From positions 1 through 39,472 of the forward strand of contig JAHBAL020000552.1 of NCBI GenBank assembly GCA_018500105.2: a DNA stretch of 39,472 bases, written 5' to 3'. A program made the translations under genes and the position numbers. The notes beneath the pieces are model-generated. The model saw nothing but the letters and a program-made list of their open reading frames with translations, was not told the DNA's origin and did no database searches. Positions 1,576-28,236 of the stretch are shown here, one piece after another (the stretch's first letter is position 1; each line of letters opens with the position of its first letter). The DNA comes from Anaerolineae bacterium. Its GTDB lineage: Bacteria > Chloroflexota > Anaerolineae > J036 > Brachytrichaceae.

Positions 1576-1709
1576 CGGGACTTACGCGAAAGTTTGATTT
1601 TCACCACAAAGCGCACAAAGAACTCGAAGATTTGCATTGGTAAACCTTTCTTTTCTTTGTGCGCTTTGTGTTCTTTGTGGTGAAATATTTTTAATGCGCG
1701 TAAGCCCTA
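1576..1709. mobile_element. MITE-like palindromic element A, copy 1
   Basis: This is a 134-bp element with inverted ends, GGACTTACGCG on the left and CGCGTAAGCCC on the right. The interior is self-complementary and rich in ACAAAGNNC/CTTTGTG 9-nt units. It lies in the opposite orientation to the copies at 13261 and 27315. The flanks carry the direct repeat AATCA (1571-1575 and 1710-1714), consistent with a target duplication. There is no open reading frame for a transposase. It sits between the convergent cox4 and lepA genes, directly against the lepA terminator. Confidence 0.8.
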
Positions 1710-13260: not shown

Positions 13261-13394
13261 TAGGACTTACGCGCATTAAAAACATTTCGCCATAAAGAAC
13301 ACAAAGGGCACAAAGGAAAGAAAGATGTGTCAATGCAAATCTTTGAGTTCTTTGTGCCCTTTGCGGTAAAAATCAAACTTTTGCGTAAGTCCTA
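13261..13394. mobile_element. MITE-like palindromic element A, copy 2
   Basis: This is an intact 134-bp copy with ends TAGGACTTACGCG and GCGTAAGTCCTA. The interior is self-complementary, with ACAAAGGGC/GCCCTTTGTG units. It is flanked exactly by the direct repeat AGGT (13257-13260 and 13395-13398). It lies between the twin operators and the TetR start, so it has been inserted into the divergent promoter region and separates the regulator gene from the operator sites. Confidence 0.87.
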
Positions 13395-20946: not shown

Positions 20947-21455
20947 GCCAATATTTTATAGTAATAAGCAGTTCCGTGCAACGTGCCATCGGGGCTGAGC
21001 GCATATTGTGGAATTTCGCCGATGCGTAAGTAGCCCAGTTTTTGATAGAGCTTTTCGGCATTTGAGCCAGCATCTGTATCGAGCACGAGCAAACTTCGCC
21101 GTTCTTGCTTGGCATAATCCTCAAGTGTTTGCATCAACCGAGACGCAATCCCGCTGCCACGCGCTTGGCGATGCACAAACAGTTTTTGCACTTCGGCCCG
21201 GTGCTGCCCATTTTCTTTTTGGCATAGCGATAATTGCACCGCGCCGAGCACTTGCTCGTCATCTTCGGCCACCCACAACACAAGGTCGGGGCCAAGCGCT
21301 GCAAACACCCCTTGCCAATAGTGCAGGGCTTTATCATGGCTCAACGGCGCGAGAAACCCGACCGATGCTCCGCCATTGACGCTATCAATCAGCACTTGGC
21401 ACAACCCATCAACCAAAGCCGGTGTAGGCTGTGCGATTCGGTGAATGTTTGTCAT
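20943..21455 (-). CDS. GNAT family N-acetyltransferase
   Basis: This is a 170-residue GCN5-related acetyltransferase. Motif A, the acetyl-CoA pyrophosphate loop, is RQARGSGIASRLMQTLEDYAKQ (about residues 96-117). It is preceded by strand 'KLFVHR' and followed by LLVLDTDAGSNAEKLYQKLGY, the GNAT motif B. The acceptor substrate cannot be inferred. It reads out of a 290-bp repeat block at its 5' side and overlaps the following small membrane-protein gene by 4 nt. Confidence 0.9.
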   Translation of the reverse strand: MTNIHRIAQPTPALVDGLCQVLIDSVNGGASVGFLAPLSHDKALHYWQGVFAALGPDLVLWVAEDDEQVLGAVQLSLCQKENGQHRAEVQKLFVHRQARGSGIASRLMQTLEDYAKQERRSLLVLDTDAGSNAEKLYQKLGYLRIGEIPQYALSPDGTLHGTAYYYKILA

Positions 21456-21458
21456 ATG

Positions 21459-21743
21459 TTGAATGGTTGATTAGTTGAATGGTTGATTAAATGGTTGATT
21501 AGTTGATTGGTTGATTGGTTGATTGAACGGTTGATTGGTTGATTGAATGGTCGAGTTGATTGAGTATCACTTGTAGGTCATTATTCAACCAATCAACTAA
21601 TCAACGAATCAACTAATCAACCAATCAACTAATCAACCAATCAACTAATCAACCAATCAACCAATCAACTAATCAACCAATCAACCAATCAACCAATCAA
21701 CTAATCAACCAATCAACTAATCAACCATTCAACTAATCAACCA
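21459..21743. repeat. Large inverted octamer/heptamer array (GGTTGATT / AATCAACC)
   Basis: The left arm (about 21459-21563) has repeated GGTTGATT, AGTTGATT and GGTTGATTG units. The right arm (21581-21743) holds about twenty AATCAACC/AATCAACT units, its reverse complement. The array fills the gap between the GNAT start (21455) and the AOR stop (21746). It is the longest such array in the window. Unlike a CRISPR, the units are contiguous with no spacers. Confidence 0.95.
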
Positions 21744-21745
21744 AC

Positions 21746-23638
21746 CTATACCCAATCTAACCCCAAGGCCGCCATTTTGGCGGTGGAAGGGTTGCCGGTG
21801 GCGAGTTCGTAACCCGCAAATTCATAGTAATGATCTTTGGCGCGTTCGATGTCGGCCTCGACCAGTGTCACACCGGCGGTTGGGCCAGTGCCTTTGAGCG
21901 CCTTGAAAAACTTCTTGGGCAATTTGTCGTTGTCGCGGGTCAAGCCTTCACGGGCATTGAAGGCTCGCATCATCGCCAAGCGGCGCTCGCCAATTTCTTG
22001 CATCTCGGCAATGCTGAAATCGGTCCAGCCCATAATCGCACGAACGATATTGACCGTATCTTCGGGGCCAAACAGCGTCCACGCCGGGCCATACACAAAT
22101 TGGCACAAATTGGCGCTGTCGAGGAACGAATACATCTTTTGCGTCTCGAACGCATAGCGCACCTTTTCCGCACCGAGGCTGCCCTTGGGCAAATGTTCAT
22201 TAAACCCGAGCGACTTCAGCTTGTTCATATAGCTCTCGCCCGCACCCTCTTCAATCGAACCATCGTGCTCGCTTGATTGATGATCTGACCCGAAGGCGTT
22301 TACCGCATAAATGAGGCCAAGCGAGCGCTTCTTTTGCGGCATATGGGCCGGTGCTTCTGTGCCTTTGCTGGTAATGAGGTAATCGTGCCCGACGCCTAGT
22401 CGGTTTGCCGCGCGTTCCGAGCCATCGGCCAACACATCGCCAAACCCTTCGCGCTTGGCGATCATTTCGGTCATGCGCAACATGGCGTCGGCATCGCCAA
22501 ATTTCAATGGAAAGCCAACTTGTGCCTCGCTCAGCAAGCCATTTTCATAGCATTCCATCGCCCAAGCGATGGTTGCACCGCAACCCACCGTGTCCATGCC
22601 ATATTCATTACACAACTGATTTGCCAGCGACACCGCGTGTAGATCGTCAATGCCGCAATATGAGCCGAAAGTGGCGATGCTTTCATATTCGGCCCCGCCG
22701 TAAAATGGGTCAACTTTGCGGCCCTTGTATTCGGTTTCGACCACGCGCTTGCACTTGACCGCGCATGAATAGCACGTGTCGCGCTCTTTCAAGATCGTCT
22801 CGGTCATCAATTCGCCGCCGATCGAATCACAGCCTTCAAATTGACCTTCGTTGTAGTTTCGGGTAGGCAAAGTGCCGCCGATATTTTGCCAAACCACCAC
22901 GCCTGCCGTGCCGTGCAAATGCAGGCCGTGCATATCGGGATTGCTCTCAACCGATTTTGCGCCACCCTTGGCGATCTCGTTGAGCGCCTTGCTGTCGGCA
23001 ACTGGCACACGTTTGCTTTTGCCGCGCACCGCGACCGCTTTGAGGTTTTTGCTGCCCATTACCGCACCCACGCCAGTGCGCCCGGCGGCGCGGTTGCTCA
23101 TGTTCATCACGGCGGCCACGCGCACCAAATTCTCGCCCGCTGGGCCAATTTGAGCCACTTCGATCTTCTCATCGCCCAATTCTTTGCGGATGAGTGCCTC
23201 GGCGTCGCCGGTGGTTTTGCCCCACATGGCGCTGGCATCGCGGATTTCGGCTTTGCCATCGGTCAGCCACAAATACACGGGGGTTGGCGATTTGCCGCGA
23301 ATGACAATGCCATCAAATCCGGCAAAGCGCATCTCGGCAGGGAAAAAACCGCCTGCTTGCGAATCTGCGATGCCGTGTGCCAGCGGCGATTTGCAACTGA
23401 TGGTCATGCGGCTTTGTCCGCTCACCGGTGAGCCGGTTAACGGCGATAGCATCATGGTGAAGATGTTATCGGGGCCGAGCGGGTCTACGCCGGGCGTCAT
23501 CTCTTTCAATAAATAATACAACCCCATCGCTGAACCGCCCATATATTTGCGGTAAAAATCGTCGCTGGGGTTCTCAATCCACGTCTTTGCGTGGGTCAAA
23601 TCAACATGTAATATGCGTCTAGTAAATCCGTTTGACAT
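21746..23638 (-). CDS. Tungsten-dependent aldehyde ferredoxin oxidoreductase
   Basis: This 630-residue AOR-family enzyme oxidises aldehydes to carboxylic acids (or the reverse) with ferredoxin, using a bis-pterin tungsten cofactor and one 4Fe-4S cluster. The family landmarks are visible: GGSAMGLYYLL (34-44), SGQSRMTISCKSPL (73-86), AGGFFPAEMRFAGFDGIVI (95-113), and NRAAGRTGVGAVMGSKNLKAV for pterin contact. The cluster Cys are Cys289, Cys292 and Cys296 (CYSCAVKC), with a later Cys in SANLCQFV. The length agrees with archaeal AOR. The enzyme class usually marks anaerobic or microaerobic metabolism, which sits oddly beside a ba3 oxidase. A MoaD-like protein gene is divergent next door. Confidence 0.96.
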   Translation of the reverse strand: MSNGFTRRILHVDLTHAKTWIENPSDDFYRKYMGGSAMGLYYLLKEMTPGVDPLGPDNIFTMMLSPLTGSPVSGQSRMTISCKSPLAHGIADSQAGGFFPAEMRFAGFDGIVIRGKSPTPVYLWLTDGKAEIRDASAMWGKTTGDAEALIRKELGDEKIEVAQIGPAGENLVRVAAVMNMSNRAAGRTGVGAVMGSKNLKAVAVRGKSKRVPVADSKALNEIAKGGAKSVESNPDMHGLHLHGTAGVVVWQNIGGTLPTRNYNEGQFEGCDSIGGELMTETILKERDTCYSCAVKCKRVVETEYKGRKVDPFYGGAEYESIATFGSYCGIDDLHAVSLANQLCNEYGMDTVGCGATIAWAMECYENGLLSEAQVGFPLKFGDADAMLRMTEMIAKREGFGDVLADGSERAANRLGVGHDYLITSKGTEAPAHMPQKKRSLGLIYAVNAFGSDHQSSEHDGSIEEGAGESYMNKLKSLGFNEHLPKGSLGAEKVRYAFETQKMYSFLDSANLCQFVYGPAWTLFGPEDTVNIVRAIMGWTDFSIAEMQEIGERRLAMMRAFNAREGLTRDNDKLPKKFFKALKGTGPTAGVTLVEADIERAKDHYYEFAGYELATGNPSTAKMAALGLDWV

Positions 23639-26147: not shown

Positions 26148-26197
26148 AAATCGGGTAGAAATCGAGTTTCTGAAAGAAACCCGATTTCTTAATTTTG
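26146..26197 (+). terminator. Hairpin terminator after the glycosyltransferase gene
   Basis: AGAAATCGGGT (26146-26156) pairs with ACCCGATTTCT (26179-26189). An inner pairing, GAAATCGAGTTTC against GAAACCCGATTTC, gives an alternative fold. A T-rich tail (TTAATTTTG) follows. It begins within the stop codon of the gene and probably terminates it ahead of the next gene at 26213. Confidence 0.65.
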
Positions 26198-26212
26198 AGT
26201 TACACTAACGCC

Positions 26213-27265
26213 ATGAAAATACTCATCATTGGGGCAGGAGCGATTGGCATTTGGGTGGCGAGCCAGATTCGTCAGCACGACCCAGACGGCAAGCATGCGG
26301 TCATTTTGTTGGGCCGGCCTCGTTTTGTGGCGGCTGCCAATGCGGATGGCATTCAGGTCAGCCATTTGCAAGCACCCGCGCAACCCCTGCACCATGTGAC
26401 GCCGATTGCGGACTTGGCCGACTTGCCCGCCTCAGCCACGCCTTTGGATGCAGTGATCGTTTGCACCAAGGCGTATTCTGTGCCGAGTGTGATCGCCGAT
26501 TTGCAGGCAGGACAGGCGGCAAACCCAATGCTGATGGACAAACGAACCTGTGTGGTGGCTTTTCAAAATGGGGTGGGCAGCGAAGAAGCCTTTGCTGAGG
26601 CGTTTGGCGCAGGCAATGTTGTGGCGGCGACGACCACCGTGCCCGTATCTGTGCTTGGCGCGGCGGCGATTCGCATTGAGCGGCTGAAGGGTGGGGCGGG
26701 TGTGGCGAGCATGGGCGGTGCGCCTGTTGACGATTTGGCGCAATTGCTCGGTGCAGTGATGTATGCCGACTGGCGGGCGATGAAATGGTCGAAATTGTTG
26801 CTGAATCTGGTTGGCAATGCCAGCAGTGCCATCTTGGGTTGGCCCGTCGGGCAAATTTATGCGCATTCGGCTGGTTTTCGGCTTGAAATTGCCATGTTGC
26901 GCGAATGTTTGGCCGTAATGCACGCGCAGGGTATTGGCGTGGTTGATCTGCCGGGTTCACGCGCTCGGCAATTGGCGCTGGTGGTGAAATGGCTGCCCAA
27001 TGCGCTGCTGAAACCCATTTTGGGCAAGCAAGCTGCCAAAGGGCGCGGCGATAAAATGCCCTCGTTTTATTACGAGGTGGAAAATCGTAGCCGCGATTGC
27101 GAGGTGAGCTATTTGAATGGCGCGATTGCCGCGCATGGGCAGCGGCTTGGCGTCGCTACGCCCACCAATCATTGCTTAAATACCGTGCTTAAGCAAATCA
27201 TTGCCCAGCCAGAAACTTGGCAAGCATGGAAAGGGCAGCCCGATAAATTGCTTGCCGCTGTGTGA
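26213..27265 (+). CDS. panE: 2-Dehydropantoate 2-reductase (ketopantoate reductase)
   Basis: This 350-residue PanE/ApbA-family oxidoreductase reduces ketopantoate to pantoate with NADPH in the pantothenate/CoA pathway. It opens with the Rossmann motif GAGAIGIW (7-14). The catalytic Lys lies in TKAYSVPS, and the substrate-binding 'WSKLLLNLVGNA' block with the conserved Lys and Asn is present. The C-terminal domain includes 'PSFYYEVENRSRDCEVSYLNGAI', the family's substrate-recognition region. Other ApbA-like reductases share these traits, so the specific substrate is not certain. I start at ATG 26213; a TTG 18 nt upstream lies in the terminator tail. Confidence 0.88.
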   Translation: MKILIIGAGAIGIWVASQIRQHDPDGKHAVILLGRPRFVAAANADGIQVSHLQAPAQPLHHVTPIADLADLPASATPLDAVIVCTKAYSVPSVIADLQAGQAANPMLMDKRTCVVAFQNGVGSEEAFAEAFGAGNVVAATTTVPVSVLGAAAIRIERLKGGAGVASMGGAPVDDLAQLLGAVMYADWRAMKWSKLLLNLVGNASSAILGWPVGQIYAHSAGFRLEIAMLRECLAVMHAQGIGVVDLPGSRARQLALVVKWLPNALLKPILGKQAAKGRGDKMPSFYYEVENRSRDCEVSYLNGAIAAHGQRLGVATPTNHCLNTVLKQIIAQPETWQAWKGQPDKLLAAV

Positions 27266-27314
27266 GGTGTTATGCTGGACAAAGCGGAGCGGCAATGGCC
27301 TTGATGTCTTTGCT

Positions 27315-27586
27315 TAGGACTTACGCGCATTAAAAATATTTCGCCACACAGAACACAAAAATCACAAAGAAAAGAAGGTTTACCAATGCAAATCTTTGAT
27401 TTCTTTGTGTGCTTTGTGTCAAAAATCGTAAAAGCTTAGGCAGGCAAGTCGTTCGGGATATTTTAACCACGAAAAGCACAAAACACACGAAAGAGAATTC
27501 TATTTTAGTGTGTTTCGTGTCTTTCGTGGTTCAGCAAGCCCAGCGACTAAGCTTTTACCAAAAATCAAACTTTCGCGTAAATCCTA
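27315..27586. mobile_element. MITE-like palindromic element A, copy 3, split by a nested element
   Basis: The ends are TAGGACTTACGCG (27315-27327) and CGCGTAAATCCTA (to 27586), flanked exactly by the direct repeat TGCT (27311-27314 and 27587-27590). It is in the same orientation as the copy at 13261. It measures 272 bp instead of 134 because element B is inserted at 27428-27558; removing element B and one 8-bp duplication restores 133 bp. Confidence 0.88.
27428..27558. mobile_element. Nested MITE-like element B with 12-bp inverted ends and 8-bp target duplication
   Basis: GTAAAAGCTTAG (27428-27439) and CTAAGCTTTTAC (27547-27558) are perfect inverted ends. The 131-bp element is flanked by exact 8-bp copies of CAAAAATC (27420-27427 and 27559-27566), where intact element A has only one. 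The interior contains a hairpin of CACGAAA/TTTCGTG units (27465-27532). No transposase is encoded. Confidence 0.9.
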
Positions 27587-27588
27587 TG

Positions 27589-28236
27589 CTAACTCAATAA
27601 TAAGCGGGTGAAAAAGTTGGCTGGCGCTGAAACAAGCCCGCTAAAGATGCCGGTATTCATCGCCAAGATGAGGATGATGAAGCCGTATCGCTCGATTTGG
27701 TGCAGAATATCGCTCATCGAGTCGGGCAAAACGGCGGCCAAAATGCGCGAACCATCGAGTGGCGGCACTGGAATGAGGTTGAAGAAAGCCAAGAATAGAT
27801 TAATGCGCACGGCAATAATGCACAAATATTCTAACAAAATAATGTCAGATGTTTTGATCAATTGGTAAACGAAACCAAAACCAATCGCCAGCAAAATATT
27901 TGACACTGGCCCAGCCAATGCCACCAGTGCAAAGGCGACCTTGGGATTTCCGTTTAGGCGATAGGTGTTGACCGGCACAGGTTTGGCCCAACCAAAGCCA
28001 AACGCGAGCAATAACAGCGAGCCAACCAGATCGAGGTGCACAAACGGGTTGATGGTGAGCCGCCCCATGCGTTCGGCGGTGTCGTCGCCCAACTTATTGG
28101 CAGCCCAAGCGTGGGCGTATTCGTGGATGGGAAAGCAGATGAACAACAAAACAGCCATTGCGCCGAGCGTCGCTAACGCTGCCATGAAATTGCCGCTTGC
28201 GAGTGCGTTGATAAAATCAAAAATTGGTCCGCCCAT
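27589..28236 (-). CDS. Site-2 protease-like M50 membrane metalloprotease
   Basis: This is a 215-residue membrane protein of the M50 (S2P) family. The zinc motif is HEYAH (His38, Glu39, His42) within the first hydrophobic region. The third ligand motif is NLIPVPPLDGS (153-163), with Asp161. Five to six hydrophobic helices are visible. It is the short form without PDZ or CBS domains. Substrates of such small S2P proteases are largely unknown; membrane anchors or signal peptide remnants are plausible. The start, ATG complementary to 28234-28236, is followed upstream by the mreB-side repeat. Its stop lies 3 nt from the end of MITE-like element A copy 3. Confidence 0.9.
   Translation of the reverse strand: MGGPIFDFINALASGNFMAALATLGAMAVLLFICFPIHEYAHAWAANKLGDDTAERMGRLTINPFVHLDLVGSLLLLAFGFGWAKPVPVNTYRLNGNPKVAFALVALAGPVSNILLAIGFGFVYQLIKTSDIILLEYLCIIAVRINLFLAFFNLIPVPPLDGSRILAAVLPDSMSDILHQIERYGFIILILAMNTGIFSGLVSAPANFFTRLLLS

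What the first reader, a model, noticed from the sequence alone, without database searches (positions are those of the whole stretch)
27311..27590. A MITE inside a MITE, with a clean 8-bp target duplication
Element B (27428-27558; ends GTAAAAGCTTAG/CTAAGCTTTTAC) interrupts element A copy 3. The 8-bp CAAAAATC is present on both sides, once each, and removing element B plus one CAAAAATC restores the 133-134 bp size of element A. This orders the events (A first, B later) and shows that B is a real transposing unit. The 8-bp duplication differs from the 4-5 bp of A, so two different transposases are implied.
Basis: seen in the sequence. Interest (0 to 1): 0.66.

Follow-up and report, generated by a model that had tools for sequence, protein, structure and literature searches.

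The report
Mini-transposon nested inside another mini-transposon
In an uncultured Chloroflexota bacterium, a small non-coding jumping element, probably moved by an IS66-type transposase, landed inside an older and unrelated small jumping element; the event is real and cleanly ordered in time, but it is a new example of a known kind of thing.

Summary
Element A (27315-27586, 4-bp duplication TGCT) is split by element B (27428-27558, ends GTAAAAGCTTAG/CTAAGCTTTTAC) with an 8-bp duplication CAAAAATC. Removing B and one CAAAAATC leaves 133 bp, as in uninterrupted A copies. B lies at about 22 places in this genome. Across 12 copies with both ends readable, plus three 236-238-bp elements with the same ends, 10 of 15 flank pairs match at 8/8 and 3 at 7/8; none of 210 mismatched pairs reaches 8/8. 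A is older: same-genus genomes carry many A copies and no B. Four contig ends carry termini of a larger insertion sequence with the same end; its right end encodes a C-terminus like that of single-ORF IS66 (ISBst12-group) transposases. So B is best read as an IS66-derived MITE; the full transposase gene is not in the assembly. A's transposase was not found. This is a new member of a known kind. In passing: both elements enclose a hairpin built on a 9-base CACRAAR motif, and such hairpins also occur without transposon ends in this and other Chloroflexota genomes.

The parts
27311..27314 (.). TGCT, left copy of the 4-bp target duplication of element A
   Evidence: 4-bp register also seen at many other A copies
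27315..27586 (+). element A copy 3 (MITE, ends TAGGACTTACGCG / CGCGTAAATCCTA), interrupted by B
27420..27427 (.). CAAAAATC, left copy of the 8-bp target duplication of element B
27428..27558 (+). element B, 131-bp MITE with 12-bp perfect inverted ends GTAAAAGCTTAG/CTAAGCTTTTAC
27465..27531 (.). core hairpin of B: (NNCACRAAR)x3-type arm, spacer, complementary arm
   Evidence: (DNA fold of whole B, z = -7.2)
27559..27566 (.). CAAAAATC, right copy of the 8-bp target duplication of element B
27587..27590 (.). TGCT, right copy of the 4-bp target duplication of element A
13261..13394 (+). element A copy 2, uninterrupted, flanked by AGGT on both sides
1577..1709 (-). element A copy 1, uninterrupted; flanking 4 bp no longer match

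Best explanation
Element B is a non-autonomous mini-transposon (MITE) moved in trans by an IS66-family (ISBst12-type) transposase that recognises the 12-bp end GTAAAAGCTTAG and makes an 8-bp staggered insertion. It inserted into a pre-existing copy of element A, an older MITE family with other ends (TAGGACTTACGCG) and 4-bp duplications, mobilised by a different and unidentified transposase. Shown: the nested structure, both duplications, the many independent B insertions, A's presence and B's absence in genus mates, and termini of a larger insertion sequence in the same genome with the same ends. Inferred: that this insertion sequence, whose full gene is missing from the draft assembly, is IS66-type and moves B.
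For: Structure and restored A size. About 22 B places; 10 aligned full copies average 92% identity. The 8-bp register: 112 of 120 flank letters match at k=8 against 32-45% at other lengths; 10/15 perfect against 0 of 210 mismatched pairs. A second non-coding element of 236-238 bp (C383, C504, C553) has the same ends and perfect 8-bp duplications TCAAAACT, GTTTTTTG, TTTGTTTG but a different interior. IS termini: C334 and C127 (left, start of an ORF MALENETAELKKL...) and C125 and C367 (right); the C334 and C125 flanks AAACCTTT/AAAGGTTT are reverse complements, as expected for the two sides of one insertion. The right-end ORF STLRKHSMNVFSALTRIFDRQPVVFQAA ends with its stop codon inside the terminal repeat and aligns to the C-termini of PF03050 transposases of G002 and G009 (scores 55 and 50, 0 of 500 shuffles as high); the G009 element ends GTAACTGCTCAG/CTGAGCAGTTAC. 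A published ISBst12-group element, ISDge4, has ends GTGACTACTCAGCA/GTAACTGCTCAGCA and an 8-bp repeat (PMC12898284); IS66 elements ISPpa5a and ISPpa7 make 8-bp repeats (PMC3281130). Age order: G002 and G003 have many A copies, G001-G003 no B.
Against: No PF03050 match in the assembly, so the transposase domain was not seen, and Pfam gives nothing for the two short terminal fragments. Only 12-14 bp are shared between B and the IS ends. That C334 and C125 are two sides of one insertion rests on the matching 8 bp alone.
Confidence: 0.85

Rival explanations
1. B is a MITE as described, but is moved by a transposase of another family that also makes 8-bp duplications; the resemblance of the ends and of the C-terminal fragment to IS66 is coincidental.
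For: No PF03050 domain in the assembly; several other IS families also make 8-bp duplications (general knowledge).
Against: The C-terminal fragment aligns to IS66 C-termini far above shuffles and shares the stop-in-terminus layout; GTAA-type ends and 8-bp repeats agree with ISBst12-group elements.
Confidence: 0.12
2. A with B inside is an inherited composite, not a record of one insertion at this place.
For: B lies in or beside A at three of about 22 places; composites of B with a third palindromic repeat do seem to spread as units (C46, C166, C233).
Against: The two B-in-A cases have different junctions and orientations; most B copies are not in A; most A copies checked contain no B; A keeps its own TGCT duplication and B its own CAAAAATC.
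Confidence: 0.03

Closest known systems
IS66 family, ISBst12 group (e.g. ISDge4 of Deinococcus geothermalis, PMC12898284)
   Same: Ends of GTnA..n.CTCAG type, 8-bp target duplication; the partner IS encodes a C-terminus like single-ORF IS66 transposases
   Different: B is 131 bp and non-coding; its end GTAAAAGCTTAG differs at several positions from ISDge4's; the full partner was not recovered
Bacterial MITEs in general
   Same: Short, no transposase, inverted ends, target duplications, many copies, hairpin-forming
   Different: Nothing fundamental; nesting of two families at base-pair resolution is merely a clear case

Membership tests
MITE | short non-coding element with terminal inverted repeats | tested here: met
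   131 bp, 12-bp perfect inverted ends
MITE | many copies at different sites with a constant-length target duplication | tested here: met
   about 22 places; 8-bp register
MITE | autonomous element with matching ends in the same genome | tested here: inconclusive
   IS termini with the same 12-14 bp at four contig ends, body not assembled
IS66-derived element | 8-bp target duplication | tested here: met
   literature values
IS66-derived element | ends beginning GTAA | tested here: met
   GTAAAAGCTTAG in most copies
IS66-derived element | IS66 DDE transposase (PF03050) encoded by the partner IS | tested here: inconclusive
   no PF03050 in the draft assembly, but a 28-aa C-terminal fragment at the IS right end aligns to IS66 C-termini

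The most novel reading that the evidence does not exclude
Two unrelated MITE frames (A with 4-bp and B with 8-bp duplications) have each taken up the same kind of pre-existing hairpin repeat, built on a 9-base NNCACRAAR motif. Such hairpins stand alone elsewhere in this genome (C11, C106, C256) and in other Chloroflexota families. The hairpin would then be a repeat class in its own right, either mobile by itself or favoured as MITE cargo.
Probability: 0.3. Interest if true: 0.45.

Novelty: new member of a known kind. Interest (0 to 1): 0.22.

Why it matters
It gives a clean relative order for two mini-transposon families in a little-studied Chloroflexota lineage and names the probable mobiliser of the younger one. 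My paper searches found little on IS66-type MITEs in the open literature held here. The wider point, if it holds, is the shared hairpin interior.

Tried and rejected
PF03050 in the own genome found nothing, probably because multi-copy IS bodies are missing from the 574-contig draft. A scan of named genomes for GTAAAAGCTTAGGCNGNCAAGNCG found no other carrier. The IS left end was sought in 396 genomes of the class: only the own two copies, plus a 30-bp weak match in G561. Contig ends bearing TAGGACTTACGCG were thought to be ends of A's transposase element, but all those read were truncated A copies. Rfam gave only sub-threshold chance matches on the hairpin. Paper searches for the hairpin's letters found nothing relevant; papers combining MITE, IS66 and Chloroflexi: none.

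Full report
Setting. The window is contig C55 of a 5.34-Mb draft genome in 574 contigs. The nearest named records by the neighbouring site-2 protease gene are Chloroflexi MAGs JAGWYZ010000007.1 and CAMDWA010000040.1 at 87-88% identity; tblastn identities match those of the genus mates G002 and G003. The element pair lies between two convergent genes, a ketopantoate-reductase-like gene (26195-27265, +) and the protease (27589-28236, -) (names from my reading of the translations).

Observation. B (27428-27558) has 12-bp perfect inverted ends and sits between two CAAAAATC. A copy 3 spans 27315-27586 between two TGCT. Taking out B and one CAAAAATC gives 133 bp; the other copies in the window are 133 and 134 bp. 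The matching stretch in uninterrupted A copy 2 reads GTAAAAATCAAAC with a single xAAAAATC, so the second copy here is a true duplication.

B as a mobile unit. BLAST in the own genome finds B at about 22 places. For 12 copies with both ends readable plus three copies of a 236-238-bp element with the same ends, the flanks agree in the 8-bp register only: 112 of 120 letters, 10 of 15 perfect, 3 more at 7/8. Among 210 mismatched left/right pairs the best is 7/8, once. Targets are AT-rich, 71% against 48% for the window. Ten aligned full B copies average 92% identity, 30 A copies 90% (the A sample is the best-matching 30, so this comparison is biased and is not used for dating).

Order of events. 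Two lines agree. Structurally, B interrupts A. In distribution, A is present in many copies in G002 and G003 of the same genus (none in G001), whereas B has no match in G001-G003. At this locus G002 and G003 have neither element, only a short intergenic stretch with another palindrome.

B and A. Besides the window, B is inside an A copy on C562 at a different position and in the other orientation, and 1 bp outside an A on C415.

Mobiliser of B. Pattern search for the B end found it near contig ends of C125, C367, C127 and C334. C127 and C334 share a left end followed by an ORF starting MALENE-AELKKLIAKLLSEIEA (complete to this length on C334 only); C125 and C367 share a right end that encodes STLRKHSMNVFSALTRIFDRQPVVFQAA with the stop codon in the terminal repeat. 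The 8 bp outside C334 and C125 are reverse complements, which fits two sides of one insertion, though this rests on 8 bp. The C-terminal fragment aligns to the ends of PF03050 transposases in G002 and G009 (PF03050 assignment), and G009's element has ends GTAACTGCTCAG, as does one end of the published ISBst12-group element ISDge4. The full transposase is absent from the draft. I therefore put the IS66 assignment at about 0.85.

A's mobiliser remains unknown. The end TAGGACTTACGCG occurs 135 times with up to one mismatch, against 5 for the reversed control; every such site read closely was an A copy or a truncated or decayed A copy, except C27, which was unrelated sequence.

Hairpin interior. 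Both A and B enclose a hairpin whose arms repeat NNCACRAAR in 9-base steps. A pattern for such hairpins matches 14 of 301 Chloroflexota genomes (own included), control pattern none; several of these hairpins, and C11 and C106 in this genome, lack the ends of A or B. G033 of another family carries about a dozen or more similar ones without such ends. Whether the likeness is by descent or by convergence was not tested.

Verdict. The finding is real and its interpretation right in all main points. It is a well-resolved example of nested MITEs, the younger one probably IS66-derived.

Noticed in passing
G000:C11:7717-7782, C106:1448-1514, C256:261-380; G033 loci L099-L111; pattern hits in 14 of 301 Chloroflexota genomes: Stand-alone hairpins with arms of 9-base NNCACRAAR repeats, like the interiors of A and B but without their terminal repeats.
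   Followed up: partly
G000:C46 (274 bp), C166 (319 bp), C233, C373, C545: B derivatives whose hairpin arm holds a third palindromic repeat (TGTAAGGGGCAAGATGATAGTA...CCCCTACA); C166 and C233 share a junction at different sites, so the composite may move as a unit; the C46 copy keeps an 8-bp duplication TTGGATTT.
   Followed up: partly
G000:C383:2977-3212, C504:5239-5476, C553:100-335: A second non-coding element of 236-238 bp with B's 12-bp ends and 8-bp duplications but an unrelated interior.
   Followed up: partly
window 21454-21750: Array of 8-bp units (ATCAACTA/ATCAACCA) with an inverted counterpart just upstream, forming long imperfect palindromes.
   Followed up: no
G000:C379:1057-1181 and 2814-2946: Two A copies 1.6 kb apart, a possible composite arrangement; the DNA between was not examined.
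   Followed up: no
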